Positions 14,688-36,907 of a DNA stretch of 64,000 nucleotides are shown here, piece after piece; within the stretch, counting starts at the first letter, position 1; the number at the start of each line of letters is the position of its first letter. The stretch is from Verrucomicrobiota bacterium (GTDB lineage Bacteria > Verrucomicrobiota > Kiritimatiellia > SS1-B-03-39 > UBA6053). Both the position numbers and the translations under genes were made by a program. The notes under the pieces are model-generated. The model had not been told where the DNA came from, ran no database searches, and saw only the letters and a list, made by a program, of their open reading frames with translations. Where the stretch lies: the NCBI GenBank assembly GCA_020831635.1, contig JAFIGC010000011.1:1-64000 (forward strand). Direction: 5' to 3'.

Positions 14688-14689
14688 AC

Positions 14690-14785: not shown

Positions 14786-14815
14786 TTGATTTCCTTTTTC
14801 ACTTTAACCTATACT
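14786..14815 (+). promoter_or_regulatory. putative sigma-70 promoter of the vWA/Tag-like operon
   Basis: TTGATT (14786-14791), an 18-bp spacer and TATACT (14810-14815) in AT-rich sequence, about 100 bp upstream of the vWA gene. No other good promoter is seen before 33607, consistent with one long transcript. Confidence 0.55.
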
Positions 14816-17771: not shown

Positions 17772-19603
17772 GCCGCACCTCCCGTCCCATGCAACCCGCC
17801 CTCATCCTTCGCCTCGCCCTGGCGGACTTGCGCCATGAGTGGATCCTGACCTTTTGCCTCGTCCTCGCCATTTCCGCGGTGATCGCCCCGCTGCTTTTGC
17901 TCTTCGGCCTCAAACACGGCACCATCGAAACCCTGCGCATGCGCCTGGTGGAAGATCCCAAAAACCGGGAGATCCGACCCATGGCCAGCCTCACCTTCAC
18001 CCGGGATTGGTTTGAGGAAATGGCGAACCGCCCCGACGTGGCCTTTCTCACCCCCATGACCCGCCAGATTTCCGCTTCCGTGACCGCCCGCATCGCGGGC
18101 AAGGACGGGTCCGCGGATCTGGATCTGGTCCCCACCGGGCCGGGGGACGCCCTGCTCTTGGAAAACGGGGCCCCCATCCCCGGCGAACAGGACGCGGTCT
18201 TGAGCGCCCTGGCCGCGGAATCCCTAAACGCGGTACCCGGGGATGTGCTGGTGGTGGATGTCACCCGCGTGGTGGGCAATCGACGCGAACGGGCCTCCGT
18301 GGAATTGCGTGTGGCAGGGACCACGAGCTTGCGCGCCGGCGCCCAGCGACTCGTGTACGTCCCCCTGGCTTTGATCGAACAGGTGGAAGCCTATCGCGAT
18401 GGTCAGGCCGTGCCGGAGTTGGGCTGGTCCGGCTCCCAGCCCGAAGCCTATCCCTTGTTCGATGGTGTGGTGGTGGCCACGAAAGAACCCATGACCGTTC
18501 TCCTCCAGCAACGGTTGCGGGCCAACAGCGGCTTTACCCAGTCCCGCGACCTGCCCGCGGGCGAAGTGGAGATGCTGCTGGGATACCCGTTGCGACAAGA
18601 AGCCGCCCTTTTCGCGCTCTCCACGCAAATCCGACCCGCGGGCATGGAAAATCTCAACGCGGTACGCACCCAACTCCGCGGCCAAAACGCCAGCATGCTT
18701 CCGTGGGTCAAACCCATGCGCGCCACCCTGATCGAACATGGACATGAACTGGAAATCCGCGTGCTTCCCGCCGAAGCGACTTCGCTCGGGGTCCTGCCCT
18801 CCCCCGCCCTGCTGGAGGAGGCTGAAAAAGGCCCGATTCCCGCCATTCTTCCCGAGGGGATCGCGGAAACGGGGGCGTTGCTTGAACTCGAAGTGGCCAA
18901 CGACACCGGCACCTTGCATTTTCCGGTCCGCGTGGCCGGAACCCATATGCTGTCGGAACCCACCCTGTTCCTTCCGGAGCGCGTGGGCGGCATCCTGCGG
19001 CTGTCCGAAACCCGTCCGCTGCGCTACGATCCCGAGCGGGGCGTGTTTCTGATGTATCGCCGAGGATACGCGGGGTTCCGCATGTACGCACGCAACATCG
19101 AGGACGTGGCCATGCTCCGCCAACTCATGGAATCCCAAAACATTCCCGTGCACACGGAAGCGGAGCGCATTCATTCCGTTCAAGAAATGGACCGGTACCT
19201 GACCTTGATTTTTTGGCTGGTGGCCACCGTGGGCATTGCCGGGAGCGTGGCCTCCCTGGTCGCCAGCCTCTACGCCTCCGTGGAACGCAAGCGCCGGGAA
19301 CTGGGGGTTTTGCGTCTCATCGGCCTCCCCTCCAGCCGCATGTTCCGCTTTCCGGTCTATCAGGGCGTGCTGATCGCGACCGGTGGTTTTGGGGTGGCCC
19401 TGATGTTCTTCCACTTGCTGGCCAACACCATCAATCACATGTTTGCCAGTCATCTGCAAACCGGCGAACGCTTTTGCTTTCTGCCCGTGGACTACACGGC
19501 CATGGCCCTGGGCGGGGTGGTGGCCGTCGCGGCCCTGTCCGCCGTCGCCGCCGTGGTGCGTCTGGCCCGCATCGACCCCGCCGAAGCCCTGAGGGACGAA
19601 TGA
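17768..19603 (+). CDS. FtsX-family ABC permease (TagS-like by context)
   Basis: This 611-residue inner-membrane permease is translationally coupled to its ATPase. One membrane span near residues 25-48 (ILTFCLVLAISAVIAPLLLL) is followed by a large periplasmic domain (about 50-480). Three C-terminal spans form the FtsX domain: LIFWLVATVGIAGSVASLVA, then a segment after SSRMFRFPVYQGVLIATG, then MALGGVVAVAALSAVAAVV. The coupling motif ERKRRELGVLRLIGL and the terminal ARIDPAEALRDE are typical of LolC/MacB permeases. The architecture matches systems that move or signal to outer-membrane partners, and in this setting TagS. Confidence 0.9.
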   Translation: MSRTSRPMQPALILRLALADLRHEWILTFCLVLAISAVIAPLLLLFGLKHGTIETLRMRLVEDPKNREIRPMASLTFTRDWFEEMANRPDVAFLTPMTRQISASVTARIAGKDGSADLDLVPTGPGDALLLENGAPIPGEQDAVLSALAAESLNAVPGDVLVVDVTRVVGNRRERASVELRVAGTTSLRAGAQRLVYVPLALIEQVEAYRDGQAVPELGWSGSQPEAYPLFDGVVVATKEPMTVLLQQRLRANSGFTQSRDLPAGEVEMLLGYPLRQEAALFALSTQIRPAGMENLNAVRTQLRGQNASMLPWVKPMRATLIEHGHELEIRVLPAEATSLGVLPSPALLEEAEKGPIPAILPEGIAETGALLELEVANDTGTLHFPVRVAGTHMLSEPTLFLPERVGGILRLSETRPLRYDPERGVFLMYRRGYAGFRMYARNIEDVAMLRQLMESQNIPVHTEAERIHSVQEMDRYLTLIFWLVATVGIAGSVASLVASLYASVERKRRELGVLRLIGLPSSRMFRFPVYQGVLIATGGFGVALMFFHLLANTINHMFASHLQTGERFCFLPVDYTAMALGGVVAVAALSAVAAVVRLARIDPAEALRDE

Positions 19604-21150
19604 TGCACCACAAATTTTTCCTGCTTTTCTTCCTTTTGGCTTGGGTCGGACTGGCTCCGGCCCAAGACCCCGACAACCCCAAACCGACCGAGGAGGACCT
19701 GATCCTGCCCATGCCGGGCGGCGGCGCCATGGTCTTCCGCCCCGTCTTTCTCGATGTGGGGGACGGGCCCTACGCGACCCGCGAATTTAAAATGGGCGAC
19801 CGGGCCATGGGTGGTTACAAAGAACACCCCACCGCCGTTCTTCTGGGCGGGTCCTTTGTGAAGGAAAATCAGGGCCAACCAGACTGGATGTACTGGATCG
19901 GCAAATACGAGGTCACCGAACGACAGTACAACCGGATCGTGAACCCCGAAGTAGAAGGGAGTCTGGAACCCAAAACCCAAATTTCCTGGCACGAGGTTCA
20001 GGACTTCATTCACCGATACAACCTCTGGTTACTGGAAACCGCCCCCGACCGCATGCCTGCCCTGGACGAAACGCCTGGCTTTCTGCGCCTGCCCACCGAG
20101 GAGGAATGGGAATTTGCCGCCCGCGGCGGGAACGAGGTGTCCATGGACATCTTTGACCGCAAACATCCCTACGGCCGAAACCTCAACCGCCACGAATGGT
20201 ATTCCGGGCCCCGCTCCTCCCACGACCGCATCAAAAACATCGGACTGCTCCGTCCCAACCCGCTGGGCATACACGACATGTTGGGCAACGTCTCGGAAAT
20301 GACCTCCGTTTCCTACCGCTTGGAATACCTTCAGGGACGTCCCGGCGGCTTCGCCTCCCGCGGCGGAAATTTCCGCACACCGGAAGCTCACTTACGTTCC
20401 TCTTTTCGCACCGAGCACGCCTTTTATCTGGCCGACGGAAGCCCCGCCGCCCAAGCCGAACTGGGTTTCCGTCTGGTCATCGCCGCCCCCGTCTTCGCAG
20501 GTCGCGAAACCATTCAGGCCCTGGAGGAATCCTGGGCGGACTACCGCCGCGAAAACCCCACCCCCGGAACCGCCGCCCAGTCCACCGCCCCCGCCGCCGA
20601 ACGCACCTTGTATTCGCTGGACGACGCCCGCAAAACCTTGGAACGTCTGGAGGCCGGCCTTCAACGTGCCACCGTCGACGAGGACACCCTCAACGCCCTC
20701 GGACTTCTCCGCGCCTCCTTTGGCGATGTGCAGGCCATGGTGCTGAAGGCCGAGCGGGATTCCGCCGCCGCCTGGGCCCGCATCGCCTCCTCCAACGCCA
20801 CCTTTTTGCGCGGGGAGGTTCGCAAAATTCCCGCCTCCCTCCGGGTAATCGAAATCACCAAACAAACCGGGGGCGCCGCCGAGCTGGCCCTCTACGAACA
20901 ACGCCATCAAAACCTCCTTAACAACATTCAAAACACCCGAAACCTCTATGGTCTCGCCATCCGCGAACTGGGCAAAGTCGCCCCCGAACGCGCCCGGGAA
21001 GGCTTTGCCGCCTACGAACGGCATTTGATCGAACTGGGCTTGGCCGAACAAATCCAAGTCAACAACCTCGTCCTGAAACAATATCTCGAATACGTGGAGA
21101 CACGGCGTCTCAACCTGGAAGCGTGGGAAACACAACTCCAGGGCTTCTGA
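19600..21150 (+). CDS. exported formylglycine-generating-enzyme (SUMF1)-like protein with coiled-coil tail (TagR-like)
   Basis: This 516-residue protein starts at an ATGATG overlapping the permease stop, with signal peptide MMHHKFFLLFFLLAWVGLA(PAQ). Residues 50-300 are an FGE-sulfatase/SUMF1 fold: YWIGKYEVTERQYNRIV, RLPTEEEWEFAARGG, NPLGIHDMLGNVSEM, RGGNFRTPEAHLRSSFR and LGFRLV. The paired cysteines of true formylglycine-generating enzymes are not seen, so a binding or sensing role is more likely than catalysis. The C-terminal 200 residues are a charged coiled coil, which TagR of Pseudomonas lacks as far as I know. It is probably periplasmic and a partner of the adjacent lipoproteins. Confidence 0.85.
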   Translation: MMHHKFFLLFFLLAWVGLAPAQDPDNPKPTEEDLILPMPGGGAMVFRPVFLDVGDGPYATREFKMGDRAMGGYKEHPTAVLLGGSFVKENQGQPDWMYWIGKYEVTERQYNRIVNPEVEGSLEPKTQISWHEVQDFIHRYNLWLLETAPDRMPALDETPGFLRLPTEEEWEFAARGGNEVSMDIFDRKHPYGRNLNRHEWYSGPRSSHDRIKNIGLLRPNPLGIHDMLGNVSEMTSVSYRLEYLQGRPGGFASRGGNFRTPEAHLRSSFRTEHAFYLADGSPAAQAELGFRLVIAAPVFAGRETIQALEESWADYRRENPTPGTAAQSTAPAAERTLYSLDDARKTLERLEAGLQRATVDEDTLNALGLLRASFGDVQAMVLKAERDSAAAWARIASSNATFLRGEVRKIPASLRVIEITKQTGGAAELALYEQRHQNLLNNIQNTRNLYGLAIRELGKVAPERAREGFAAYERHLIELGLAEQIQVNNLVLKQYLEYVETRRLNLEAWETQLQGF

Positions 21151-21181
21151 TTCCAACCACCCCGAATTGAAAGACAAGCTC

Positions 21182-21823
21182 ATGAAAACACTCATTCCCC
21201 TCCTCATACTCTCCAGCCTGCTGGCGGGCTGCGCCACCTCCGACGATCAAAAAACCCGCCAACAGGGTGCAGGCTTCGGCGCCGCCGGGGGTGCCCTCAT
21301 CGGGGGTATCATCGGTCACCAAAGCGGCCGCGGCTGGGAAGGCGCCTTGATTGGCGCCGGTGTCGGTGCCGTGGCCGGCGATATCTATGGCCAGCATGTG
21401 AGCCAAAAAAAAGCCGAGTTCGCCTCTCAAGAGGAATACCTCGACGCCTGCATCGCCGAAGCTTCGAACAAACATCAGGCCGTCCTCGCCCAAAACCAGC
21501 AACTCCAAATGGAAATCGTCTCCCTCGAACAGGAATTGAACACCCTGGCGGCCACCGCCGAATCTCGCGCCGCCCATGCCGAACGTCTCAAGCAAATGCG
21601 CAAACATCTCGCAAGCCAAATCAAGTCATCCGAGAAAGAACTCGGAGCCCTGAACGATGAGATTGCGTTGCAACGCGCCGTCCTGAACGAGGAAAAAGCG
21701 ACCGCGCCAGAAGGCTCCATCCAACGCCTGGAAGCACAAATCACCGCCTTGGAAGAACAACGGGAGCTTCTCCGCGAAAACACCCGTCAATTGGCCGCCC
21801 TCAACAACCGTGCCTCCGCATAA
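21182..21823 (+). CDS. glycine-zipper lipoprotein with coiled coil (positional TagQ equivalent)
   Basis: This 213-residue lipoprotein starts MKTLIPLLILSSLLAGC, with lipobox LAGC at Cys17 and Ala at +2, favouring outer-membrane sorting. Residues 28-75 are a glycine zipper (GFGAAGGALIGGIIGHQSG, then GALIGAGVGAVAGDIYG) that may insert in a membrane. The rest, to the end, is a long coiled coil. ATG 21182 is preferred; a TTG five codons upstream would spoil the signal peptide. TagQ in Pseudomonas is the outer-membrane lipoprotein of the TagQRST group. Here the equivalence rests on position and lipidation, not on recognised sequence similarity. Confidence 0.8.
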   Translation: MKTLIPLLILSSLLAGCATSDDQKTRQQGAGFGAAGGALIGGIIGHQSGRGWEGALIGAGVGAVAGDIYGQHVSQKKAEFASQEEYLDACIAEASNKHQAVLAQNQQLQMEIVSLEQELNTLAATAESRAAHAERLKQMRKHLASQIKSSEKELGALNDEIALQRAVLNEEKATAPEGSIQRLEAQITALEEQRELLRENTRQLAALNNRASA

Positions 21824-21838
21824 GCCAAGGAGTCCCAC

Positions 21839-22333
21839 ATGAAATCTCCATACCTTCTCCTCGCCCTCGCCCTCCTCTGTGGTTGCAGCACCTCCAGCGA
21901 CCCGAGGGAGGGCGGACTCGTCGGCTACTGGTCCACCGGCCGGCAAGGCTACCAACAACGTCTTGACGAACGCGGCCAAACCTTGGAAGGCATCCAGCGC
22001 CAAACCGCCGAAGAGGAACGCGCCGGCCAATCCGCCGCCGCCCGCAGGCAATCCCTGCGGGAACAACTCGCCCAACAACGCGCGCGGCTTCAGGAAATCG
22101 AAGACCAAGTGGAGGCCCTGCTCGACGAGAGCGAAGCGCTCAATCTGGAAACCCTCGCCAAACAGGAAGAACGCGCCCAACTCTCCAACGACCTGCGCGC
22201 CCTTCGCAGTCGTGTGAACGCCGCCCAAAAGGATCCGGAAATCCGCATCGCCGAACGGGAGCGGGAACTGGAAAAACTTCAGGAAGAAGTTGGCCTCCTC
22301 CTCGAACGCTACTCACTGCTCACCACCCTCTGA
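21839..22333 (+). CDS. small coiled-coil lipoprotein
   Basis: This 164-residue lipoprotein has signal MKSPYLLLALALLCGC (lipobox LCGC at Cys16, Ser at +2). Almost all of the mature part, from about residue 40, is a Glu/Gln/Arg-rich coiled coil (QRLDERGQTLEGIQRQTAEE, then EIEDQVEALLDESEALN). AAGGAG lies just before the ATG. It follows the previous lipoprotein by 15 bases and probably pairs with it, or with the coiled-coil tail of the FGE-like protein. I do not recognise a family. Confidence 0.75.
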   Translation: MKSPYLLLALALLCGCSTSSDPREGGLVGYWSTGRQGYQQRLDERGQTLEGIQRQTAEEERAGQSAAARRQSLREQLAQQRARLQEIEDQVEALLDESEALNLETLAKQEERAQLSNDLRALRSRVNAAQKDPEIRIAERERELEKLQEEVGLLLERYSLLTTL

Positions 22334-22340
22334 CCCGCTC

Positions 22341-23525
22341 ATGCCGAACCTGTCCGTACTCCTCTTTTTCATCTTGGCCACCAACGCCCCGGCTTTGCCG
22401 CTTCGGGCGCAAGAGGAGCGTTGGACCCGCAACGAGGCGATGCTGACCTTTTTCGAAGCCCTCCGCGCGGTGGAGGATCATGCCGTGGAACCCCACACCC
22501 TCGCCGAACTGGTGGAAAGCAGTCTGCGCGAACTTCTCCCCACCTTGGACCCTCACGCGGAGTACCTGAGCGCTGCGGAAATGGAAAAACGTTTCGGCAA
22601 GCCTGGCGAGGTCTATGGAGGGGTGGGCATGGAATTGCGCCTTACAGAAGCGGGCGTGAGCTGCTTTCCCTACCCGGACAGTCCCGCGGAACGGGCCGGC
22701 ATCCGGGAGGGCGACATCCTGGTCGCCGTCGATCTACAAGACGTGAAAGGAATGAACCCCCGGGAATGTGCCACCCTGATCCGGGGTCCTCTCCCCAGCC
22801 AAGTCCACCTGACCGTCCGCACCCGGGACAACGAAACCCGAAAGCTCAACGTGCTCCGCCAACAGATCAATCCGAAAACCGTGGTCCTCCGCAAGGAGCC
22901 GGGAGAAGCCCTGCTGCGCGTTTACACCTTCAACGCCTCCACTCCGGGGGAATTCCGTCGGCTTGTCAAGGGAGTGGCTCCCGAAGACACCCTCATCGTG
23001 GACCTCCGGGGCAATCAGGGAGGCAGCCTCTATGATGCCGTGGACATTGCCGCTTTTTTTCTGCCGGAAGGCCGCGAAATCCTTACCGTTCACAAACGTG
23101 ACGGCAGCCGAATTTGGAAAAGTCCCGCCGACGGCCCTTTTGTGGGACGGCGAGTGGTTTTGCTCCAAGATGAAAACAGCGCCAGCGCCGCCGAGGTTCT
23201 CCTCGCCGCCCTCACCCGCAACGGGGCCGCCACCTCCATCGGCGCCCGCTCCCTTGGCAAGGGCACCACCCAACAGCTGTTTCCCCTTTCCACCGGCGGT
23301 GCCATCCTTCTGACCGATGGAACCCTCGAGGGCCCCGGTGGCTTGAACTGGAACAACACCGGCCTTCCGCCCGACATCCCCCTGCCTGATTTTAACAAGT
23401 CGGCTTGGGGAGCGGTGACCCTTTCAGACTCCCTCCCCCCCGCTTTCCCGGATATTTCCATCCCCCCCGGCACTCCCTCCGGGGAAAATCCGACCAAAAC
23501 CCCAAAAAACGAGAACATGCCATGA
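22341..23525 (+). CDS. exported S41 (C-terminal processing) peptidase with PDZ domain
   Basis: This 394-residue periplasmic serine protease of the CtpA/Prc family starts at ATG 22341 with signal MPNLSVLLFFILATNAPALP. A PDZ domain spans about 90-165 (GVGMELRLTEAGVSCF, SPAERAGIREGDILVAVD, CATLIRG). The S41 core contains LIVDLRGNQGGSLYDAVDIA, then ENSASAAEVLLAAL with the Ser nucleophile (Ser280 or 282), and GKGTTQQLFPL with the Lys base (about 307). The Ser-Lys dyad is intact. The C-terminus is Pro-rich. It is coupled to the next gene by ATGA. Family members trim or degrade envelope proteins, so it may process its operon partners. No partner is proven. Confidence 0.88.
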   Translation: MPNLSVLLFFILATNAPALPLRAQEERWTRNEAMLTFFEALRAVEDHAVEPHTLAELVESSLRELLPTLDPHAEYLSAAEMEKRFGKPGEVYGGVGMELRLTEAGVSCFPYPDSPAERAGIREGDILVAVDLQDVKGMNPRECATLIRGPLPSQVHLTVRTRDNETRKLNVLRQQINPKTVVLRKEPGEALLRVYTFNASTPGEFRRLVKGVAPEDTLIVDLRGNQGGSLYDAVDIAAFFLPEGREILTVHKRDGSRIWKSPADGPFVGRRVVLLQDENSASAAEVLLAALTRNGAATSIGARSLGKGTTQQLFPLSTGGAILLTDGTLEGPGGLNWNNTGLPPDIPLPDFNKSAWGAVTLSDSLPPAFPDISIPPGTPSGENPTKTPKNENMP

Positions 23526-25099
23526 CCACCAAAGCCCTCCTCCTTGCCTGCCTGATCGGCTTGTGCGGCCTCACCGCCCTTCGCGCCCAAACCCCGGAAG
23601 AAATTCGCGCCGCCCGTCGACTTCGCGCCGACGCCGCCTACCTCGAAATGAAAGGCGACAAAGCCCAGGCCCTCGAGAAATATGAGGCCAGCCTGGCAAT
23701 TCTTCCCGATGCCGCCATCGCCCAAAAGGTCGAGGAAATGAAGAGTGAGGCCCTCGGCCCCGTAGCCGATGTCTCCCAACTCACCGGCGAAATCTATGCC
23801 AAGCTGGATCTGGACGGCTTTATGCTCTTCCAACTCAACGTGGAAAGCCTGCTCAACCCCATCCGCGAAGAAGCCTTTTCCCTCATCAATGTCATGCAAT
23901 CCGCCATGGAAGATGAGGGCGAACTCGACGAAGATAGCGAACAATACATGTCAAATCTGAAAAAGGTCGATCCCGTCCTCGACTGGCTGGGCCTTTACGG
24001 CATACGGGGCATCGGCGTCAGCGTGGCACCCGTCGGTCCTCGGATTTCCCGCGCCAAAACCTACCTGCGCATTGACGAAACCCAGGCCGACCGCGCCCTC
24101 TGGCGCCTGGCGGGTACCCCCGCCTCCAAGAGCAATCTGGGCTATTTCCCCGCGGATACCGCCCTGGCACTGTCCACAAACGTCGGCCCCGGCGATTTGT
24201 GGATGCTGGTTCGGGACGGTTTCATGACGTTTGCCCCCGACCAGGTCGAAATGATGGGCATTCCGCTCGTGGAACTCGCCGAAATCCTCCCGGAAGGGGT
24301 TGACCCCGAGGATCTGATCACCTCCCTCAAAGGCGGTTTCTTCGCGGGGGTCATGCTCTCCGAGACCACCCGCGTGAAAATTCCGCTTCCCGACGAAGAC
24401 ATCCTCGACATTCCCCAACCCGGACTGATCCTCGGCATCCGTTGCGAAAACGATCTGCTTCATAAAACCCTGCTCACATTTCTGCGGGACGAAGCGGAAA
24501 TGCCCCTGACCGAGCAAACCGTCGCGGGAACCACGATTCATTCCTTCCCCTTGCCCATACCCATGCCCTTCACTGTGCAGCCCGCCATGACCCTTCATGA
24601 AGGAACCCTCCTCTTTGCCTCTCATCCCGATGTGCTGGACCAGGCCTTGACCGGCCATGCCCGGGGGGGCGGACTCCTCACCAGCCCGGCCTTCCTGGAA
24701 GCCAACGGCCCCATGCCGGATGCCCTCAACGGCTTCATGTACGTCAGCCAAAAACTCTTCAAGGAATACACGGATCTCTCCGTGAAAATACTCGCCCAAG
24801 ACCTGAGTTCCGAAGGCATGGCCGAACTGAACGCCCAACTGGCCCAGCTCCCCTCCCGCCGGGATGATAACTTCATCTCCTCTCACTCCATCCGCGATGG
24901 CGATGGCATCCTCTGGGTCACCCGCTCCAGAACCGCCTACGACCACCCCTGGGCGCCCTCCTTGGCCCGTGAAGCCACCATCTTCGCAACCATCGCCCGC
25001 GAACGCGCCCGCGAGATGCAACGAATCATGGAACTCAGAAGGCAGCAGATGCGGGAATGGGAAGAGCAAATGCGACAAATGGAGGCGGAAAACCAGTAA
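23522..25099 (+). CDS. secreted protein with N-terminal TPR-like motif, function unknown
   Basis: This 525-residue protein has signal MTTKALLLACLIGLCGLTAL, cleaved near RAQ. The mature N-terminus (residues 30-74) starts with the recurring TPR-like motif RRLRADAAYLEMKGDKAQAL plus YEASLAILPD. The rest is a mixed alpha/beta body with DVSQLTGEIYAKLDLDGF, GYFPADTALALSTNVGPGDL and a repeated-looking half TTIHSFPLPIPMPFTV. This resembles secreted DUF3352-like two-lobed proteins, which I offer only as a hint. A Met/Gln/Glu-rich helical tail (RRQQMREWEEQMRQMEAENQ) closes it. Its start overlaps the S41 protease stop. Confidence 0.7.
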   Translation: MTTKALLLACLIGLCGLTALRAQTPEEIRAARRLRADAAYLEMKGDKAQALEKYEASLAILPDAAIAQKVEEMKSEALGPVADVSQLTGEIYAKLDLDGFMLFQLNVESLLNPIREEAFSLINVMQSAMEDEGELDEDSEQYMSNLKKVDPVLDWLGLYGIRGIGVSVAPVGPRISRAKTYLRIDETQADRALWRLAGTPASKSNLGYFPADTALALSTNVGPGDLWMLVRDGFMTFAPDQVEMMGIPLVELAEILPEGVDPEDLITSLKGGFFAGVMLSETTRVKIPLPDEDILDIPQPGLILGIRCENDLLHKTLLTFLRDEAEMPLTEQTVAGTTIHSFPLPIPMPFTVQPAMTLHEGTLLFASHPDVLDQALTGHARGGGLLTSPAFLEANGPMPDALNGFMYVSQKLFKEYTDLSVKILAQDLSSEGMAELNAQLAQLPSRRDDNFISSHSIRDGDGILWVTRSRTAYDHPWAPSLAREATIFATIARERAREMQRIMELRRQQMREWEEQMRQMEAENQ

Positions 25100-25186
25100 A
25101 CGATCCCGCTTCATTCAGGGCGCGTTCAGAAAGCAAACGTCTGGCGAACGGTATCGAACAAGGAATTCATTGAGAAGGAGTATACC

Positions 25187-27223
25187 ATGTGGAACTTCCA
25201 CTTTTCGTCAAAGATTCGGCTGCCTTCAACCCGACACGGGGAACGCGCCTTGAACGTTACTGAGCCTGCTTGCGCGCATTTTCACCCCAAACGGTGTAAT
25301 TTCAACGCTGCCCGAAATTTGGTTTTCCTGCTCTTCTTCCTATGCGCCGGGTGGCTGGGCGCGCAAGTAGCTCCAGCAACAGAACTTGTACCAGCCTCCC
25401 TGCCCACGGAAGAAAATGTGCGCCAAGCGCGACGGGCCCGGGCGGATGCCGCCTACCAGGAAATGAAAGGGGATATCGAGCGGGCGATTGAGCAATACGA
25501 AGCCAGCCAGACGTTTTTACAAGACAGTGAGATCGTTGCGAAAATCGCCGAACTGCGCGGCCGAGCGATCCCAAAGCCTGAGCCGACGGCGACCACCACG
25601 GCAAACCAGGAGCAAGCCCCCGATCCAGCATGGATGCCCGATCAGGCTCCAGAACCCCTTGTTCAGGATCAATCACCCCCCGTTTTGAAGGCGAATCTGT
25701 CTATGCGTTGGATGGGATCCTTCCACATGGCGGTTCCCGTGACGTGGCAGCATCAATTTTATCGGCATCTCGAAATCCATGCGGATGGAAAATTCGAACG
25801 TTCCGTGACCAGTTATTCTTATGGAATTTACTCCGGCATCCCCTTGAAATCCCTCCTTGGGGACCTGTCGGTGGATGAGATCATCGGGCATCCAGCGCTG
25901 ACGATTGCCGCCGTGCAAGCCAAGAAGGATGAAACGATTGATAATTTCACATATGTCTTTAGAGGAATGCTCGTAAGGGCCGGGGGGAAAGACTTTCCCG
26001 TAGAGTTGCGGGATGCAACCTTGGCTGGACGGGCTGTGAAACGGATCGACGCTCCCATGGATGTGGAGCTTGCTCCTGATTCACCTCCTTTCCCGGGATT
26101 CATGCAGGCGTGGATATTCACCCAACCCGATTCCTCAATTTTACAGGGCGCAGTCATCATCAGCGGAAACAGAGACACTCTGGTTGAGAAGCAAGAGCTA
26201 TTGGATAAGATGCTTTCCTCCATCGATTGGGACACACCGCCTCCGTTCAAATCCGCCGGGGCCTTCTCCATCTGGGAGGGGGAAAAGCACTCCGTCCCCG
26301 CCATGCACGAATTTAATCTCTTTGGTAAAGTTCCCCTCCCCCGGGGTATTTCCGGCGTGGCTCTCGCAGCGGATGGCCGCGTGGCGGTCAGCCTGGGAGA
26401 CAAAGACGCGTTGATTCGCGTCTTCGATGCCCAGGGAACGTTTCGAAAGAAATGGTCCTTGCTCTTTGATGAAAAACATGGTGCCAATCCCAGATTGCTC
26501 AACATCTTCATGACGGCGCAGGACACCTTGTTTCTAACATGTGCTTCCTTGCGCGGCGATGCTTTCATTTTCGAGTACACGCTGGATGGCAAGCTGGTGA
26601 ACACCATCGGCCTTCAGCCCGTTGAGGTGGAGGGGGAGCAGATGAATATTCTCTCCCCACGTGTCCTGGGGGTCACGGAGTCGGGCGCCATCTGGTTACA
26701 GGGGCATATACGGGGTGAGAACATGTTGGTTCGTGTCAACCGCGAAGGTCATGTCGAGGTGAAACACAAGCTGGACCTGGATGTGAAGCTTTCCTCACAG
26801 TTGCCGGAAGGGTCTCTGGTAGGCGTGAGGGAGACGAAGTCCATGGTGCGGATTCTCGTCATCCAACCAGACGGGACAATTGCCCGTGAGTGGGGTCGGG
26901 GGGGTATTCAGTCATCCGCCGCTCTTGGGGGCGACCAGCTGTTTTTCGCAATGTCTTCAAGCCTGGCCGTTGACAACGTGGGACGCATCCTTGCATACGG
27001 AGGGAGGTCCCTGTTCATCTATGGCCCAGAAGGCAACCTCCAGCAAACCTATTCGCCGGATCCATCCCCCAGCTCCAAGGCGATCATCGTTCGTCCTGAT
27101 GGGAAGGTGATGATCGCCGGGCAACCGGACTGGGGTGGTCCGGCGCAAATCCTTTTGTACGAGCCCCGGGGCGGTCATCCATACCCTGCTCCTCGGGAAA
27201 ACCAAGGGACACTTGAAAAATGA
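25187..27223 (+). CDS. exported TPR-like motif / beta-propeller protein, function unknown
   Basis: This 678-residue protein starts at ATG 25187, preceded by a very good AAGGAG. The hydrophobic segment NLVFLLFFLCAGWLGAQ comes only at residues 44-60, so the export signal has an unusually long n-region (or the true start is an internal codon). The TPR-like motif follows (about 78-122: RRARADAAYQEMKGDIERAI). Then come a Pro/Gln linker, a beta-rich domain (170-370), and a propeller-like C-terminus (380-670) with ALAADGRVAVSLGDKDALIR, LAVDNVGRILAYGG and IVRPDGKVMIAG, as in NHL/SMP-30-type propellers. An 87-bp gap separates it from the previous gene; its stop overlaps the next start. Confidence 0.7.
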   Translation: MWNFHFSSKIRLPSTRHGERALNVTEPACAHFHPKRCNFNAARNLVFLLFFLCAGWLGAQVAPATELVPASLPTEENVRQARRARADAAYQEMKGDIERAIEQYEASQTFLQDSEIVAKIAELRGRAIPKPEPTATTTANQEQAPDPAWMPDQAPEPLVQDQSPPVLKANLSMRWMGSFHMAVPVTWQHQFYRHLEIHADGKFERSVTSYSYGIYSGIPLKSLLGDLSVDEIIGHPALTIAAVQAKKDETIDNFTYVFRGMLVRAGGKDFPVELRDATLAGRAVKRIDAPMDVELAPDSPPFPGFMQAWIFTQPDSSILQGAVIISGNRDTLVEKQELLDKMLSSIDWDTPPPFKSAGAFSIWEGEKHSVPAMHEFNLFGKVPLPRGISGVALAADGRVAVSLGDKDALIRVFDAQGTFRKKWSLLFDEKHGANPRLLNIFMTAQDTLFLTCASLRGDAFIFEYTLDGKLVNTIGLQPVEVEGEQMNILSPRVLGVTESGAIWLQGHIRGENMLVRVNREGHVEVKHKLDLDVKLSSQLPEGSLVGVRETKSMVRILVIQPDGTIAREWGRGGIQSSAALGGDQLFFAMSSSLAVDNVGRILAYGGRSLFIYGPEGNLQQTYSPDPSPSSKAIIVRPDGKVMIAGQPDWGGPAQILLYEPRGGHPYPAPRENQGTLEK

Positions 27224-27960
27224 AGACGATTAAAACACGCGTGATCCCCTTCCTCCTGTTGGCAGTTTTTTTTGTCGCCCACCTACTCGCGCAGAGTCCT
27301 GATGTCCTCCAGCGTGTCCGTCGTCTGCGCGCGGACGCGGCCTACGAGGAGATGAAAGGAAACCCCTCCAGAGCCTTGGAATTATACAAAGAAAGCCACA
27401 GGCTTCTTCCCTCGGACGAAACGGGTGCCAAAATCAGGGCCCTGGAACCTGCGGCCATGGAACGGGATCCCCTTGCCGGACCGGATTTGCCCCCGCCACC
27501 GGATGAGCTTCCCCGGGGGGACGCGGAGATCAGCCCCGCCGGACGTCTGGTCGACCTCATGGGCATGAGGGAATGGGTGGAGGAAGCCAAACCCGGATTT
27601 GTGTTGGAGCTGCTGAATGCCATGCCTGGCATGACAGACCATGTGGACCTCCTGATCGTGCATGTGGAGGAGACCTTGGACTGGCAAAAAATACGACCGG
27701 AGATTACCGCGCTGCTGGAGGCCTCGTTCACGCCCGACGAGTTGACAGACATGCTCGCGTTTTATCAATCTCCCGTGGGACGAAAAATGATGGCGGCCCT
27801 CCCCGAACTCTCCGCTGACATGCAACTCCGCATGGAGGGTTTGTTCTTGAACGACCTGGACATCCTCGAACTCCGAGTGAAACAGCGGGAGTTGGAGTTG
27901 TTGGAACGCGAGCTGACATTTCTGGAAGAAGAGCCCACCTTAACAGAGGAGCAGCCGTGA
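27220..27960 (+). CDS. secreted TPR-like motif + DUF2059-like protein
   Basis: This 246-residue protein has signal MKTIKTRVIPFLLLAVFFVA ending near LLAQ. The TPR-like motif begins right after cleavage (about 32-75: RRLRADAAYEEMKGNPSRAL). A Pro-rich linker leads to a DUF2059-type helical domain (about 105-220) with FTPDELTDMLAFYQSPVGRK and MMAALPELSADMQLRMEG; that family is periplasmic and of unknown activity. The tail is Glu-rich. The start and stop codons both overlap neighbours, so it is translationally coupled on both sides. Confidence 0.78.
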   Translation: MKTIKTRVIPFLLLAVFFVAHLLAQSPDVLQRVRRLRADAAYEEMKGNPSRALELYKESHRLLPSDETGAKIRALEPAAMERDPLAGPDLPPPPDELPRGDAEISPAGRLVDLMGMREWVEEAKPGFVLELLNAMPGMTDHVDLLIVHVEETLDWQKIRPEITALLEASFTPDELTDMLAFYQSPVGRKMMAALPELSADMQLRMEGLFLNDLDILELRVKQRELELLERELTFLEEEPTLTEEQP

Positions 27961-30900
27961 CCCCCCCGCCCGGTTTCAGCTTGGGCCGACGAAAATGGCT
28001 TCTCCTGTGCTGTCTCTGCCTTTCCCAGCCCTTGTTCTCACAATGGGTGCCGGAAAACACCGGGGACATCCTCAGGGCGTTTCGCTCCGTGGCGGAGCAG
28101 GGAGCAAACGCCCCACTCGACCAACAAGCTCTGGCCTTCAAACATTTCCCGGCCCTGGATGCCAACCTCTACCCGGAGGCCTCGGCCTATTGGGAGGCCA
28201 ACCAACAGAATTTCTGTCGATGGCAGGACAGGTTCATCCACGACGCGGCAACGGAAAACAATATGGCCTACCAACGCCAGACGGTGACCCGCGCCCCCAC
28301 GCGAGGATCCGACACAGATGCCCTGATGAGGCGGGCCTCACCAAATGATCCCCCGCTGACCGCCCAACAAATTGAACGGGCCCGCCGGGCATACCATCGC
28401 AATGTCCGCTCTTTTTTCAGGGAAAACCATGTGGCCAGCGATAATTTCATGCTGGAACACGAGACCTCCATCATGCCCGACCCCAACCACACCACCCGCA
28501 GGGAATGGGACCAATGGGTGCGCGAAGCCTCCGCCCGTGACGAAGTGATTTATCACGACCCCCTGGCCGCCTTATTTGAGGCCAACCATCGGAACCAACG
28601 CCCCTACACCTTGCAACAGGCGGACGCCCGGGTACAGGAATCCATGCGTCTGGCCCACGAGAGCTATGCGAAAGCGGACGCCCTCACCCGAAAGGCCATG
28701 GGCTATCCGGAGGGCAGCATGGCGCGGGCCCACCTCGAGTGGGAAGCCCAAAAAGCAAAACACAACGCCGCAAAATATTTGGCCCGGGTCATGGAAACCG
28801 GCGACCTGATTGCCGAAAATTCCCAGATTCGTTCCCAATCGGTTCTGGACCGGATGTTGATGCACGATGGCGACCCCCAAGAAGTCCTCAACCTGTTGTC
28901 GGAAAGACGGCAAACCAGACAAGGCCTACGGAATGCGGCCCAGTCCTCCGCTGCACGCGACCAATACATTCAGCGCGCCGCCCAACACTATGCCATCAAC
29001 CGCATGAATTCCGCCTGGGCGGGCGCGGGCGCGGACAACCCCGTTTTGAGAGCCACCCATGTCCGGGACGCCGCCCGAATGCTGAAACAAACCTCCACCG
29101 CCGCCCAAGGGGAGATGATCGAGCATTTCCGCCTCACCCATGGCGACGATGCAGCGAGGGAACTCGCCAGGGCCATGCGGGTGATCCCGGATGAAAACAC
29201 CCGGCGCAGCCTTATGAAAGGCCTGAACCGCCTTGCGGAGTCCAACCTTGACGCCCTGAATCGCGGCAACGCCACCGCCGCGAATGAGGCGTTGGAGGCC
29301 ATGGCCTTATCCTTGCGCTCTCAAACCCTGACCCAACAGCGGAACGCCCTGGATTCCCTGGCCCAAAAACATGGCCAGCCCATGGCCATACGCATCCAAC
29401 AACGTATGCTGTCATTACGGTTACAGGAGGCTCGTCTGGAAAAACGCAAGGAATGGCTGACCAAACACGGGGCGGAATATGTGGGCCACATGATGACCCT
29501 TTACGGCTTTTATTCCAGCCTCAATCGAATCGAAGCCGCCGAAGACGCCTCCAAACAAGGGGGAATTGAACTGGGGCAATTCACCGGAAGCTATCTGGGC
29601 GGCAAGGCGTCCACCCTCTTGTTGGGCACTTCATTCGGGGCGGTGGGAAAATACACCGGGATGACCTTGGGCGCAAAAACCGCCGCCTATGGTGCCAAAC
29701 TCGGCTTGAAATTCGGCGTGGCGTCAGGATCGCTGGCGGGTCCGCTGGGGCAAGTTGCGGGAGGGATTGCGGCAGGCATGATCGGCGGGGCCGTGGGCGG
29801 AGCCATCGGCGCCATCGCGGGGAACACCGATTCCTTTTTATGGGAACAGAATTTGTCCGAAGAGGAGTTCAACCGTAGGGCCCTGCAAGCCTCCGCCCCC
29901 CTGCCAGCCGATGTCTACCAACGCCTCCGGGGCCACGGCCTGGACCATGACCAGGCCTTGAACTTGGCCCAACTCTACCAAGGAGGCTCCCTGGCCGAAT
30001 TCAACCAACACATCCGCGCCATTCGCAAAGAAAAAAACCTGCGGGAAGAACGGGAATTGGACAACCGGGAACGGCTGGAGGCGTATCTTCGCGACCAAGC
30101 CTGGTTTCGCGCGAACTGGCTGGAAGAAGATCGCCGCCTCGCGGACAGGGAGCGTGAAATGGAATCCGCCATTTCCGGGTGGGTGGGCATGCTGCAGACC
30201 CTTCCCGCCGATGAACGGCAGCGCCTCATGAACAAAGCGGGCGTGCCCACTTGGCAAGCCGAGGAAATCCATCAACGCGTTCAGGCCTTCCAAAATGACC
30301 TCTCCCTCCAGGCCGCCCGCTTGGCCCAACTCCGCGCATGGGATGAACATACGCGGGGCTTGCCGCCAGACCTGCGGAGACAGGCCCTGCAGTCGCTTGG
30401 CGCCTCACCGGGGGACATGGTGGAGTTGGAGAACTACGCCAGGGAGACTCGCCAACGGGAATGGATCCACTTTTTGGCGATTCTGGAATCCCTCGACGCC
30501 GAGTCCCGCGCCGCCCGCATGGGGGAGCTGAATGCCATTCAATTGGAAGAGCTGGAGAAAATTCGAAGACACATTGCCGGGGCCCCCGAAACCGAACATG
30601 TTCCTGAACAAGCCCCGCCTCCCCTCGACATCGGGAGCCCGGAGGACTTCAAAGGGGTGTGGGTTTTGGACCGGGTTCATCACGAAACGTTTACGGATTA
30701 CCTCTTCAACAGCCCTCTTCCCCAACAATACAAAGAATTGGGCGTAACCGATTTCGAGCACCGGACCTCCGGAAGCATGGAGATGGGGGCGGGCCGGGGA
30801 CGCGCAACCGTCCGCCGGAATTCGGTGTACGCCTGGGAATTTGACGAGGATGGCAAGGTGACCAAAACCGTGCCCTATTCCTACTCCTTTGAGTTGGAGT

Positions 30901-32987
30901 ACTTCTGGAGCATCCCGCCTTTGGTCTTGCACGCGGGCGACAGGTGGTGGGGTCCCATGGAATTCGGCGTGCGAAAACTTCGTGCCGACGGTTTACGTCC
31001 CGGTACCGGAAACGATTACTTTTACCATGCTCTTACCCGCATGTTGATTCTGTTGGATCCGAAATCCACGACCCCCCACCACGTCCAGAATGACGCGCTC
31101 TCCTACATCCAGCCTATCATGGAGATGTACCCCTCCGCAACCGGGTGGAGGCTGGGCCGGGGACGTGAAGGGGATCGCCCCGATGGCAAATGGGAAAGCA
31201 TAATCAGTCCCCCGGGAACACCCGGGACGCGGGCGGGGCTCCCACACGGAACCGAGGAAGGGGTCACCACCCTGCGTATTAGCATCGACATGACCCTGCA
31301 AAGACAAAGGATTTTCCGTTCCCGAAACGACCCTGCCGAAGCCTGGACCACGGTGGAACGTGACCTTGAGAACGCCTTTTCCCCCACACAGTGCGCCACC
31401 TTATGGGATTACCGGTTTTATGACGACCCGGAGGAAGCGCGAGAGGCGGTTCAACGTGCCTGGGAACGGCAAGGTCAACACCAAACCCGCGCCCAAGAAG
31501 CGCAAGTCAGAGTCCTTGGCGCCCCGCTTCAGGCTCGCTTTGGTGACCGGCTAAACCTGCGGGCATGGTCCCTTCATACCGGTTCCTCCTATCGTTATGT
31601 CTGGAATTCAGAACCTTCCCTGGCCTTTGCCCAAACCATCTCAAACCAAGCGGAAAACGAGGTGACCCTGACCCGGGCGGGCGAGCTGTTGGTCTGGGTG
31701 GAGCTGCAACAACGATCCGGAGCCAACTGGGAAACGCTTGCCCAGTCCCCCGCCGTGCGTGTCGAGGTTCCCCCACCGCAGGTGGATCTGCATTTCCTTC
31801 CCGCCCCCGCCGAGGCTCGCGTGGGACAACCCGTTCATGTTCTGCTGCGCCCCCCCTCCAATTTAGACTCAGCCGAATGGCACTTTACCTGGCTTGAACC
31901 CGCCGACATCTTCACGGTGGATGCGTCAGGATGGGAGGTCCGGTTCACGCCGGCGGACGAAACGCCGGTTCCGCTGCGTGCGGAGGCTCGGTGGGGCGAT
32001 CATCCCGAGCCAAGCCTGTTTGTGGAGGAAGTGTTTTTGGTGCCCCCGGATCCAGGTGAAACCCTCGAGGAGCTTATGATGGAGTGGATTGAAAAAGGCT
32101 GGCAATTGGAAAACGAAGACGATTTGGCGCAAGCCTTGGAATGCTATCAAATCGCCTTTCGCTTGAAGGCACTGCCCCAGCTCGAAGAGCGCATTGAGGC
32201 TCTGAAGACCGAGATCGAACACCGCAAGCAGGCGGTCCTCCTTTTGCAAGAAGGGGAAATTCTGGCATCGCAGGGGAAACTGGAAGAGGCTTTGGTGCTT
32301 TGGCTTCAAGCCGAACAGCTTCACGCATCCTTGGAAATCCAGGAATACATCCAGCGTGTCCGCCGGCGGCTGCGGGCTTTGGAACTGAAAACCCAAGGGG
32401 ATCGCGAAGCGGAGACGGACAATCTCCAGGCCGCGCTCGCCGCATACAATTCCGCCCAACTTCTTGACCCCACGCTGCTCCTCCATACGCGGATTCATGA
32501 ACTGTCCCAAAGACTGGATGCGGAAACCCGGGCCCGGCAGTTGGTGGAGTTGGCCCACGGCTTTGAACTGCAAAAAAACCTGCCCGCCGCCATTGATCAT
32601 TACGAGCGTTCCTTGGGCTGGTTGGCCAACAAGGCGGTGGAGGATCGGATTCGGGAACTCAAACTTTTCTTGCAGCTCGACAATCTTCTCTGGGATGCCC
32701 GCTGGCATGAACAAGAAGAAAACTGGGAGGACGCCATTGAAACCTATGGCCAGATGCTGCGGCTCCAACCCAATCACAAGATCCGTGAGCGCATGCAGGA
32801 ACTCCATGCGCACGTCCACGTGACCACGGCGCAATCCAAAGAAGCCGAGGGCGACTGGTCCGGGGCAATGATGGCCTACATGATGGCCAGAAACGTGCGC
32901 CCATCTCCCGCCATCCAAGAAAAAATAGAGGAAATGCAACGAAACATGCGGTCTTCCCGCCTGATGGAAGAAGGCTACAATCGGTGA
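27957..32987 (+). CDS. giant exported protein: novel N-terminal region, glycine-zipper segment, Ig/PKD-like domains, TPR-like repeat array
   Basis: This 1,676-codon gene has a GTG start overlapping the previous stop (GTGA). Signal-like RRKWLLLCCLCLSQPLF precedes SQ. Residues 30-300 share landmarks with the protein at 8997: GSDTD near 118, MPDPNHTTR near 173, then YHDPLAA. About 525-620 is a long Gly/Ala-rich hydrophobic zipper (GGIAAGMIGGAVGGAIGAIA) that could enter a membrane. Charged helices follow (640-880), then a unique domain with LDRVHHETFTDYLF (about 905-1010). Two Ig/PKD-like domains lie at about 1180-1360. The last 310 residues are about six copies of a 50-residue TPR-like unit. This is likely a scaffold at the outer face. 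No enzyme motif is seen. Confidence 0.8.
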   Translation: MTPPPGFSLGRRKWLLLCCLCLSQPLFSQWVPENTGDILRAFRSVAEQGANAPLDQQALAFKHFPALDANLYPEASAYWEANQQNFCRWQDRFIHDAATENNMAYQRQTVTRAPTRGSDTDALMRRASPNDPPLTAQQIERARRAYHRNVRSFFRENHVASDNFMLEHETSIMPDPNHTTRREWDQWVREASARDEVIYHDPLAALFEANHRNQRPYTLQQADARVQESMRLAHESYAKADALTRKAMGYPEGSMARAHLEWEAQKAKHNAAKYLARVMETGDLIAENSQIRSQSVLDRMLMHDGDPQEVLNLLSERRQTRQGLRNAAQSSAARDQYIQRAAQHYAINRMNSAWAGAGADNPVLRATHVRDAARMLKQTSTAAQGEMIEHFRLTHGDDAARELARAMRVIPDENTRRSLMKGLNRLAESNLDALNRGNATAANEALEAMALSLRSQTLTQQRNALDSLAQKHGQPMAIRIQQRMLSLRLQEARLEKRKEWLTKHGAEYVGHMMTLYGFYSSLNRIEAAEDASKQGGIELGQFTGSYLGGKASTLLLGTSFGAVGKYTGMTLGAKTAAYGAKLGLKFGVASGSLAGPLGQVAGGIAAGMIGGAVGGAIGAIAGNTDSFLWEQNLSEEEFNRRALQASAPLPADVYQRLRGHGLDHDQALNLAQLYQGGSLAEFNQHIRAIRKEKNLREERELDNRERLEAYLRDQAWFRANWLEEDRRLADREREMESAISGWVGMLQTLPADERQRLMNKAGVPTWQAEEIHQRVQAFQNDLSLQAARLAQLRAWDEHTRGLPPDLRRQALQSLGASPGDMVELENYARETRQREWIHFLAILESLDAESRAARMGELNAIQLEELEKIRRHIAGAPETEHVPEQAPPPLDIGSPEDFKGVWVLDRVHHETFTDYLFNSPLPQQYKELGVTDFEHRTSGSMEMGAGRGRATVRRNSVYAWEFDEDGKVTKTVPYSYSFELEYFWSIPPLVLHAGDRWWGPMEFGVRKLRADGLRPGTGNDYFYHALTRMLILLDPKSTTPHHVQNDALSYIQPIMEMYPSATGWRLGRGREGDRPDGKWESIISPPGTPGTRAGLPHGTEEGVTTLRISIDMTLQRQRIFRSRNDPAEAWTTVERDLENAFSPTQCATLWDYRFYDDPEEAREAVQRAWERQGQHQTRAQEAQVRVLGAPLQARFGDRLNLRAWSLHTGSSYRYVWNSEPSLAFAQTISNQAENEVTLTRAGELLVWVELQQRSGANWETLAQSPAVRVEVPPPQVDLHFLPAPAEARVGQPVHVLLRPPSNLDSAEWHFTWLEPADIFTVDASGWEVRFTPADETPVPLRAEARWGDHPEPSLFVEEVFLVPPDPGETLEELMMEWIEKGWQLENEDDLAQALECYQIAFRLKALPQLEERIEALKTEIEHRKQAVLLLQEGEILASQGKLEEALVLWLQAEQLHASLEIQEYIQRVRRRLRALELKTQGDREAETDNLQAALAAYNSAQLLDPTLLLHTRIHELSQRLDAETRARQLVELAHGFELQKNLPAAIDHYERSLGWLANKAVEDRIRELKLFLQLDNLLWDARWHEQEENWEDAIETYGQMLRLQPNHKIRERMQELHAHVHVTTAQSKEAEGDWSGAMMAYMMARNVRPSPAIQEKIEEMQRNMRSSRLMEEGYNR

Positions 32988-33607
32988 ATTCAGAACCTTT
33001 TTTGGACTTCATTATGCTACCACCCAATCCCGAAACCAGTGCATTCCGATATGCAAAAATCGCAAGTGCGGTCTCCGTACCTCTGTTTATTCTGCTTGTT
33101 CTGATCCTCCGCAAACCCTTGCTCGATCGTAATGATGCCTCTTTTGCCATTGTCTCCATTATCACGTTCATGATAATGCTGATCAGTCTCTGCGTGCTGT
33201 TGGTGACCTGGCGAGAGTCTGTGCATTACCGAAAACTCTGTCACCCCGACAATCTGTTGGCCTATTGGACCTATGACCCTCGGGAAATCCCCGGAGGACC
33301 GGGAAAGGCGCTGGTCGCCCGGGTCTCCCCCCCAAAAAAATTGTTCGCCCTCATTTCCAAGAACGGAACGTATGTGTCCTATACGAAAACCCGTCAATAC
33401 GGCTCCTGGGCATTTCCCAAACGCTTGGAAGAAGTGAGTATCCAGGAAATCAAAGGAAGACCGCATCTCTTTTTTGAGATTTCCGAACCCTCGATGGCGG
33501 GTGGTGTTTACATGCGCGTTACGGTGGAAAGCAGTCGCGGCATCCTGATTCCCGCCGGAAAAGCGGATGAGGCCGAGGCCCTGATTGCCTTTCTCCGTAC
33601 CCAATAA
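32984..33607 (+). CDS. small membrane protein ending the 25-kb operon, function unknown
   Basis: This 207-residue protein starts at a GTG that overlaps the stop of the giant gene (GTGA); an ATG 11 codons in (MLPPNPETS) is an alternative. Two membrane spans, IASAVSVPLFILLVLIL and FAIVSIITFMIMLISLCVLL, are joined by a short loop. The remaining 120 residues form a beta-rich soluble domain that could be PH-like (SKNGTYVSYTKTRQYGSW, then RLEEVSIQEIKGRPHLFFEI). This layout resembles small YcxB-like proteins, which I note only as a resemblance. It could anchor the system in the inner membrane. Confidence 0.7.
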   Translation: MNSEPFLDFIMLPPNPETSAFRYAKIASAVSVPLFILLVLILRKPLLDRNDASFAIVSIITFMIMLISLCVLLVTWRESVHYRKLCHPDNLLAYWTYDPREIPGGPGKALVARVSPPKKLFALISKNGTYVSYTKTRQYGSWAFPKRLEEVSIQEIKGRPHLFFEISEPSMAGGVYMRVTVESSRGILIPAGKADEAEALIAFLRTQ

Positions 33608-36900: not shown

Positions 36901-36907
36901 GGCGGCC

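What the first reader, a model, noticed from the sequence alone, without database searches (positions are those of the whole stretch)
21839..33607. Extension of the Tag-like core into a 12-kb coupled operon of exported proteins
Downstream of the lipoprotein, eight further genes follow with ATGA or GTGA overlaps or short gaps: coiled-coil lipoprotein, S41 protease, three motif-bearing secreted proteins, a 1,676-codon giant and a small membrane protein. Nothing of this composition is known to me next to tag genes. The likely topology spans inner membrane (permease, final membrane protein), periplasm and outer membrane (lipoproteins, giants). This reads as one machine whose function is undescribed.
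Basis: partly seen in the sequence, partly recalled or inferred. Interest (0 to 1): 0.85.

Follow-up and report, generated by a model that had tools for sequence, protein, structure and literature searches.

The report
Tag-like envelope sensor with protease attached
In an uncultured bacterium from the PVC group, genes for a known type of cell-envelope sensor (which elsewhere tells bacteria when to fire a toxin-injecting machine) are joined instead to a protein-cutting enzyme and a family of exported proteins sharing a private tag, pointing to an undescribed use of that sensor.

Summary
The genes are real and in the stated places, but there are seven (G-M), not eight, and they do not form one conserved unit.

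(1) The coiled-coil lipoprotein G is an ordinary last member of a known six-gene module (vWA, ABC ATPase, FtsX permease, SUMF1-like, Gly-zipper lipoprotein, coiled-coil lipoprotein). This is the TagQRST/PpkA-sensor module, also found beside T6SS or srfABC genes in Proteobacteria.

(2) The PDZ-S41 protease H and tagged protein I belong with it. A same-genus genome keeps A-I in order. A distant genome of the same class keeps B-C-D, E-F-G-H and I at three loci. Azospirillum has B-G followed by an S41 protease. These form a separate branch with a long FtsX.

(3) J-K-L-M is a lineage-specific cassette, exactly absent from the same-genus genome.

A 55-residue TPR-like tag occurs in A, I, J and K (weakly in L) and nowhere else in the 6-Mb genome. 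Among 346 class genomes its strong matches fall only in the three genomes that have the module. No T6SS sheath gene, SrfB or adjacent kinase was found.

Best reading: a Tag-type trans-envelope sensor whose output is probably a CtpA-like protease with tagged clients. The parts are shown; the mechanism is inferred. New variant of a known kind.

The parts
8936..8965 (+). promoter-like TTGATT-18-TATTAT upstream of A, conserved in the same-genus genome
8943..14687 (+). A: giant 1 (1896-1914 aa; best start 8997). N-terminal domain shared with giant L, FecR, internal TPR tag (13473-13637), C-terminal PPC domain
   Evidence: kept in G002
14786..14815 (+). promoter-like TTGATT-18-TATACT upstream of B; -10 region conserved in G002, -35 is TTGCTT there (read by eye)
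14914..16995 (+). B: secreted SH3-like/vWA protein (693 aa), like the periplasmic vWA part of PpkA; MIDAS-type D258-T260-S262 conserved
17007..17771 (+). C: ABC ATPase (TagT-like, LolD/MacB class)
17768..19603 (+). D: long-form FtsX permease (611 aa; TagS-like)
19600..21150 (+). E: SUMF1/FGE-like protein (516 aa; TagR-like), no cysteine so probably not an enzyme
21182..21823 (+). F: Gly-zipper (17-kDa-antigen type) lipoprotein, TagQ-like
21839..22333 (+). G: coiled-coil lipoprotein, sixth member of the module
22341..23525 (+). H: PDZ-S41 C-terminal processing protease, Ser282/Lys307/Gln311 conserved
23522..25099 (+). I: exported protein with the TPR-like tag directly after the signal peptide (23600-23764)
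25187..27223 (+). J: exported 678-aa protein with the tag (25415-25579); cassette gene 1
27220..27960 (+). K: exported DUF2059 protein with the tag (27304-27468); cassette gene 2
27957..32987 (+). L: giant 2 (1676 aa), N-terminal domain as in A, C-terminal TPRs; cassette gene 3
32984..33607 (+). M: small membrane protein with two predicted membrane segments; cassette gene 4

Best explanation
Genes B-I are a third, T6SS-free branch of the TagQRST/PpkA-sensor module. Shown: the eight components, their order, their retention in other genomes, their relatives, and the restriction of the TPR-like tag to this locus. Inferred: outer-membrane lipoproteins F and G and the SUMF1-like pseudo-enzyme E watch the state of the outer membrane and wall. 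The free periplasmic vWA protein B (with no kinase attached, unlike PpkA) relays this to the long-FtsX/ABC pair C-D, which turns ATP hydrolysis into a periplasmic shape change (as in FtsEX, LolCDE and MacB) instead of moving a small substrate. The output is periplasmic: the CtpA-like protease H, with tagged protein I as its adaptor or first client (as TPR adaptors activate CtpA and Prc), trims or releases exported proteins that carry the tag. J-M, and the giants A and L, are lineage-specific clients or effectors added around this core; J-M as a four-gene cassette.
For: Module identity: B-E match vWA-ABC-FtsX-SUMF1 neighbours in order in Tistrella (beside T6SS), Klebsiella, Lelliottia, Gluconobacter and Hyphomicrobiales UR115 (beside srfABC) and Azospirillum. 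S41 linkage in three lineages: window and G002, G040 (E-F-G-H contiguous), Azospirillum; catalytic Ser/Lys/Gln kept in all. This branch groups together in trees of B, D and E and has a long FtsX (610-621 against 391-408 aa). The set B-I is co-retained in G040 although split over three loci. The tag is found only at this locus in the 6-Mb genome; of 346 class genomes its three strong hits are the three module genomes. H's best solved relatives are carboxyl-terminal proteases led by 7rpq, which from my own knowledge is P. aeruginosa CtpA; CtpA needs the TPR lipoprotein LbcA, as Prc needs NlpI (PMC8764530). TssC/VipB and SrfB were not found in the own genome, with positive controls.
Against: No experiment links the ABC pair to the protease. 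One TPR-like repeat is not a full LbcA-type adaptor, and I is not a lipoprotein. The Azospirillum exported proteins share an N-terminal repeat that is not homologous to the tag, so a tag-protease rule across phyla is not shown. No fold could be assigned to I (model pLDDT 40) or to the giants' N-terminal domain. In G040 I is unlinked from H. A kinase elsewhere in the genome cannot be excluded as the output. The window genome is a 96.5%-complete draft, so absences are not absolute.
Confidence: 0.5

Rival explanations
1. The module still signals through a kinase in trans: B-G activate an unlinked Ser/Thr kinase, as TagQRST activates PpkA, and H-I are housekeeping neighbours.
For: In Tistrella a kinase and PP2C precede the vWA gene; in Azospirillum a kinase-like gene, a PP2C and a TerY-type vWA lie divergently beside the module; related kinase-like genes exist in G000 and G002 but not in G001, G003 or G040.
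Against: No kinase, PP2C or FHA gene was recognised in the flanks read. The G000 kinase-like gene lies in a kinase/PP2C/vWA cluster beside CRISPR-like genes on another contig. G040 has the module but no such kinase match. B has a signal peptide and no cytoplasmic part.
Confidence: 0.17
2. An export and surface-assembly machine: the ABC-FtsX pair with E-G moves or releases the giants and tagged proteins to the outer surface (LolCDE- or MacB-like work), with H maturing them.
For: C is closest in class to LolD/DevA/MacB ATPases; the neighbouring giant A has PPC and FecR domains typical of exported proteins; tag and module co-occur.
Against: The same module elsewhere sits with T6SS or srfABC and no giants, and in P. 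aeruginosa it senses envelope damage (PMC11881912). G040 has the whole core but no protein with the giants' N-terminal domain.
Confidence: 0.2
3. Mostly neighbourhood: B-G is the functional unit, and H, I and J-M are independent envelope genes that share a transcript.
For: J-M is missing from G002; G040 keeps I unlinked from H and E-H unlinked from B-D.
Against: S41 next to E-F-G in three lineages, and tag/module co-occurrence with G040 as an independent match (1 in 344), are hard to get by neighbourhood alone.
Confidence: 0.13

Closest known systems
TagQRST-PpkA threonine phosphorylation pathway of the P. aeruginosa H1-T6SS
   Same: Gly-zipper/17-kDa-antigen type OM lipoprotein (TagQ), SUMF1-like periplasmic protein (TagR), FtsX permease (TagS), ABC ATPase (TagT), periplasmic vWA sensor (PpkA C-terminal part; PMC3224232)
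   Different: No T6SS sheath gene found in the genome, no adjacent kinase, phosphatase or FHA gene; vWA is a free exported protein; vWA gene comes first; S41 protease and tagged exported proteins follow
srfABC-associated Tag modules (Klebsiella plasmids, Lelliottia, Gluconobacter; Deltaproteobacteria in PMC3608642)
   Same: Same vWA-ABC-FtsX-SUMF1 order and lipoprotein pair; no T6SS needed
   Different: No SrfB in G000, G002 or G040; FtsX about 200 residues shorter and outside this clade
Azospirillum brasilense plasmid locus (NZ_CP059450.1)
   Same: Same order B-C-D-E-F-G, long FtsX, S41 protease, then large exported proteins with a shared N-terminal repeat
   Different: Kinase-like/PP2C/TerY-type genes alongside; extra 261-aa gene (weak peptidoglycan-binding match) before S41; its repeat is not homologous to the TPR tag
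CtpA-LbcA (P. aeruginosa) and Prc-NlpI (E. coli)
   Same: Periplasmic PDZ-S41 protease, here encoded with a TPR-motif partner
   Different: Partner I carries one TPR-like unit and no lipobox; protease is encoded with an ABC/vWA sensor module

Membership tests
TagQRST/PpkA-sensor module | FtsX permease and ABC ATPase pair (TagS/TagT) | tested here: met
   full-length or two-piece matches to module permeases of Azospirillum, Tistrella, Klebsiella
TagQRST/PpkA-sensor module | SUMF1/FGE-like periplasmic protein (TagR) | tested here: met
   PF03781 E=9.7e-25; 29-37% identity to module SUMF1 proteins
TagQRST/PpkA-sensor module | Gly-zipper/17-kDa-antigen type OM lipoprotein (TagQ) | tested here: met
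   PF05433, PF13441, PF13488 and lipobox LAGC; TagQ likened to the 17-kDa Rickettsia antigen in PMC3608642; P. aeruginosa TagQ itself was not compared
TagQRST/PpkA-sensor module | periplasmic vWA domain of PpkA | tested here: met
   B aligns over most of its length with module vWA proteins; PpkA vWA from PMC3224232; P. aeruginosa PpkA itself was not compared
TagQRST/PpkA-sensor module | attached or adjacent Ser/Thr kinase with PP2C and FHA target | tested here: not met
   B has no kinase domain; no kinase, PP2C or FHA gene recognised in the flanking window genes (not every flanking gene was scanned)
Type VI secretion system | TssC/VipB sheath protein in the genome | tested here: not met
   PF05943 absent from G000, G002, G040; positive control E. 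coli
SrfABC system | SrfB | tested here: not met
   PF07520 absent from G000, G002, G040; two plasmid positive controls hit
CtpA-type S41 protease with TPR adaptor | Ser-Lys-Gln catalytic residues and PDZ domain | tested here: met
CtpA-type S41 protease with TPR adaptor | TPR lipoprotein adaptor that binds and activates the protease | tested here: inconclusive
   I, J and K carry one TPR-like unit after the signal peptide but no lipobox was seen; binding not testable here
Type VII (mechanotransmitting) ABC systems such as FtsEX, LolCDE, MacB | four-TM FtsX/MacB permease with a large periplasmic domain | tested here: inconclusive
   FtsX C-terminal domain (PF02687) and hydrophobic segments at 21-39, 480-498, 530-548, 569-587 fit; mechanotransmission itself is not testable here

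The most novel reading that the evidence does not exclude
A previously undescribed envelope-control pathway in which a Tag-type ABC/vWA sensor, freed from kinase and T6SS, gates a C-terminal processing protease that recognises a dedicated TPR-like tag on exported proteins, including giants with a conserved N-terminal domain of unknown fold.
Probability: 0.27. Interest if true: 0.78.

Novelty: new variant of a known kind. Interest (0 to 1): 0.55.

Why it matters
TagQRST is the module through which P. aeruginosa feels outer-membrane damage and retaliates, but what it senses and how the ABC pair acts are unresolved (PMC11881912). A natural version that appears to lack kinase and T6SS, carries a protease, and has a parallel in the culturable Azospirillum brasilense would let the sensing half be studied apart from the weapon. 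It would also show that the module is a general envelope sensor that has been wired to at least three outputs (T6SS, srfABC, S41 protease).

Tried and rejected
One transcript and one machine from 14820 to 33607: rejected as a conserved unit, because J-M is absent from the same-genus genome. Hidden T6SS: TssC/VipB absent. SrfABC partner: SrfB absent, with positive controls (alone had no control). Anti-phage defence: no PADLOC match for B, D, E, I, J, A or L. Enzymatic FGE: E has no cysteine. T9SS (GldK/PorK) similarity of E: weak, confined to the SUMF1 fold and below the curated cut-off. Homology between the window's TPR tag and the Azospirillum N-terminal repeat: none by profile comparison. 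A fold for the giants' N-terminal domain: model of moderate confidence (pLDDT 74, pTM 0.71), no PDB match at E <= 0.001; its GSDTD...TDFM pattern made me think of a nucleotidyltransferase, with no support. A fold for protein I: model unusable (pLDDT 40). A linked kinase in the own genome: the match to the Azospirillum kinase-like gene lies in an unrelated cluster. The module's donor lineage was not traced.
Full report
WHAT IS THERE. The window is contig C251 of a 6.0-Mb draft genome in 308 contigs. A same-genus genome, G002, is the MAG 'PVC group bacterium T3Sed10_216', from soda-lake sediment (PMC6146748). Genes, all on the + strand: A giant 1 (8943/8997-14687), B vWA (14914-16995), C ABC ATPase (17007-17771), D FtsX (17768-19603), E SUMF1-like (19600-21150), F Gly-zipper lipoprotein (21182-21823), G coiled-coil lipoprotein (21839-22333), H PDZ-S41 protease (22341-23525), I (23522-25099), J (25187-27223), K DUF2059 (27220-27960), L giant 2 (27957-32987), M membrane protein (32984-33607), then a nitroreductase N (33677-34333). 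The finding's interval holds seven genes, G to M, not eight. Gaps or overlaps are B/C +11, C/D -4, D/E -4, E/F +31, F/G +15, G/H +7, H/I -4, I/J +87, J/K -4, K/L -4, L/M -4.

THE CORE IS A KNOWN MODULE, AND G BELONGS TO IT. tblastn against plasmids finds B in 127 records, nearly all over at least 80% of its length, always at below 60% identity. In Tistrella mobilis the order is tagF, PP2C, kinase, vWA, ABC, FtsX, SUMF1 inside a T6SS locus. In Klebsiella, Lelliottia and Gluconobacter plasmids it follows srfB and srfC, and in Hyphomicrobiales UR115 the same by homology. Small proteins with a lipobox, one Gly-zipper-like and one coiled-coil, follow SUMF1 in Lelliottia and Gluconobacter, and lie upstream of srfA in Klebsiella; they align with F and G, though similarity of the coiled-coil pair is weak outside the PVC genomes. 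The components correspond to TagQ (likened to the 17-kDa antigen, PMC3608642), TagR, TagS, TagT and the vWA-bearing outer part of PpkA (PMC3224232). P. aeruginosa Tag proteins themselves were not available for direct comparison. Tag genes without a T6SS were reported in 2013 beside srfBC (PMC3608642).

THE EXTENSION: H AND I ARE PART OF IT, J-M ARE NOT CONSERVED. In G002 the DNA matches the window at 81-85% identity from 8932 to 25100, which is A through I, and resumes at 33689, inside N. J-K-L-M is therefore a cassette gained here or lost there. In G040, a distant genome of the same class (another family), B-C-D sit on contig C22, E-F-G-H are contiguous on C26 at 57, 46, 42 and 42% identity, and I is alone on C46 at 31% over 515 residues. 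So the eight genes B-I are co-retained although split over three loci. B is found in only 3 of 346 genomes of the class, which suggests horizontal acquisition (inference). In Azospirillum brasilense the order is vWA, ABC, long FtsX, SUMF1, Gly-zipper lipoprotein, coiled-coil lipoprotein, a 261-aa protein, S41, then two large exported proteins sharing an N-terminal repeat, with a kinase-like gene, a PP2C and a TerY-type vWA gene on the opposite strand (Pfam gave no kinase match for the first). Trees of B, D and E put the window, G002 and G040 together with Azospirillum next to them (support 1.0 for B, 0.999 for the three PVC members in D with Azospirillum adjacent, 0.987 for E), apart from the T6SS and srf forms, and their FtsX is about 200 residues longer. 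With only nine or ten sequences these trees are a guide, not a proof.

THE TAG. A 55-residue TPR-like unit (EIRAARRLRADAAYLEMKGDKAQALEKYEASLAILPD...) follows the signal peptide in I, J and K and lies inside A. A profile finds it in the own genome only in A, I, J and K, and weakly in L. In G002 it is only on the module contig, in A, I, a Sel1-repeat protein and weakly in another giant. In 346 class genomes the only hits below 1e-15 are G000, G002 and G040; the next best (4e-9 and weaker) are in TPR-rich large proteins. Because the profile was built from G000 and G002, only G040 is an independent match: one module genome and one tag genome among the other 344, about a 0.3% chance of coinciding (my calculation).

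CHEMISTRY READ FROM SEQUENCE. H keeps Ser282, Lys307 and Gln311 in all four lineage members; its best-scoring solved relatives are carboxyl-terminal proteases led by 7rpq, which I know as P. aeruginosa CtpA. CtpA is inactive without the TPR lipoprotein LbcA, as Prc depends on NlpI (PMC8764530). E has no cysteine, so it is unlikely to be a formylglycine-generating enzyme (rule from general knowledge). B keeps D-x-T-x-S and a later Asp, fitting a metal-ion-dependent adhesion site. F and G have lipoboxes and no Asp after the Cys, which by the E. coli rule means outer membrane.

PROMOTERS. A TTGATT-18-TATTAT element before A is conserved in both species. A TTGATT-18-TATACT element before B has a conserved -10 region in G002. 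A is therefore probably its own transcription unit and B the start of the second. Nothing promoter-like was seen in the I-J gap; transcription was not tested.

MECHANISM. In P. aeruginosa TagQRST reports outer-membrane damage to PpkA (PMC11881912). Here no kinase domain is attached to B, none was recognised nearby, and TssC and SrfB were not found. The conserved addition is a protease and a tagged exported protein. I therefore infer that the envelope signal is turned into protease control: lipoproteins, SUMF1-like protein and vWA sense; the ABC pair supplies mechanical work; H acts on or with tagged proteins. The giants and J-M would be lineage-specific clients. The components, order, co-retention and tag distribution are shown; the flow of signal and the protease-tag relation are inferred.

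VERDICT. Partly confirmed observation, partly supported interpretation. A new variant of the Tag-type sensor module, with a modest but real surprise in the recurrent S41 link and the locus-private tag.

Noticed in passing
L031:1758-9086 (-) (G002:C142): Another giant (2442 aa; PKD-like and many C-terminal TPRs) with the same N-terminal domain as A and L, preceded by a 433-aa Sel1-repeat protein carrying the TPR tag, divergent from A in the same-genus genome.
   Followed up: partly
window 8997-10200 and 27957-29000; L045, L046: The giants' N-terminal domain (pattern G[ST]DTD...T[DS][FI]M...TT) occurs in only 4 of 58 relatives (G000, G002, G055, G017); no Pfam match and no PDB fold match.
   Followed up: partly
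window 35617-37609: Two-gene anti-phage system of AbiL type: AbiLi (AAA_21 ATPase) and AbiLii by PADLOC.
   Followed up: no
L081 (G000:C150:10000-23000): Kinase-like, PP2C-like and TerY-type vWA genes next to genes that by eye look like Cas10/RAMP type III CRISPR proteins and possible CARF proteins; not scanned.
   Followed up: no
L050 10009-13344 (-): Kinase-like/PP2C/TerY-type vWA trio divergent from the Azospirillum module; a candidate link between Ter-type and Tag-type signalling.
   Followed up: partly
L049 and Thiodictyon plasmid near 338543: In Candidatus Thiodictyon syntrophicum the vWA-ABC pair and the FtsX gene lie about 266 kb apart on the same replicon, another case of a split module.
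   Followed up: no
window 809-5350: Probable type II secretion or type IV pilus genes (pilin-like prepilin leaders at 4332 and 4787, a GspF-like gene at 2927), judged by eye.
   Followed up: no
window 41003-42025 (-): Probable REP-associated (Y1-type) transposase, judged by eye.
   Followed up: no
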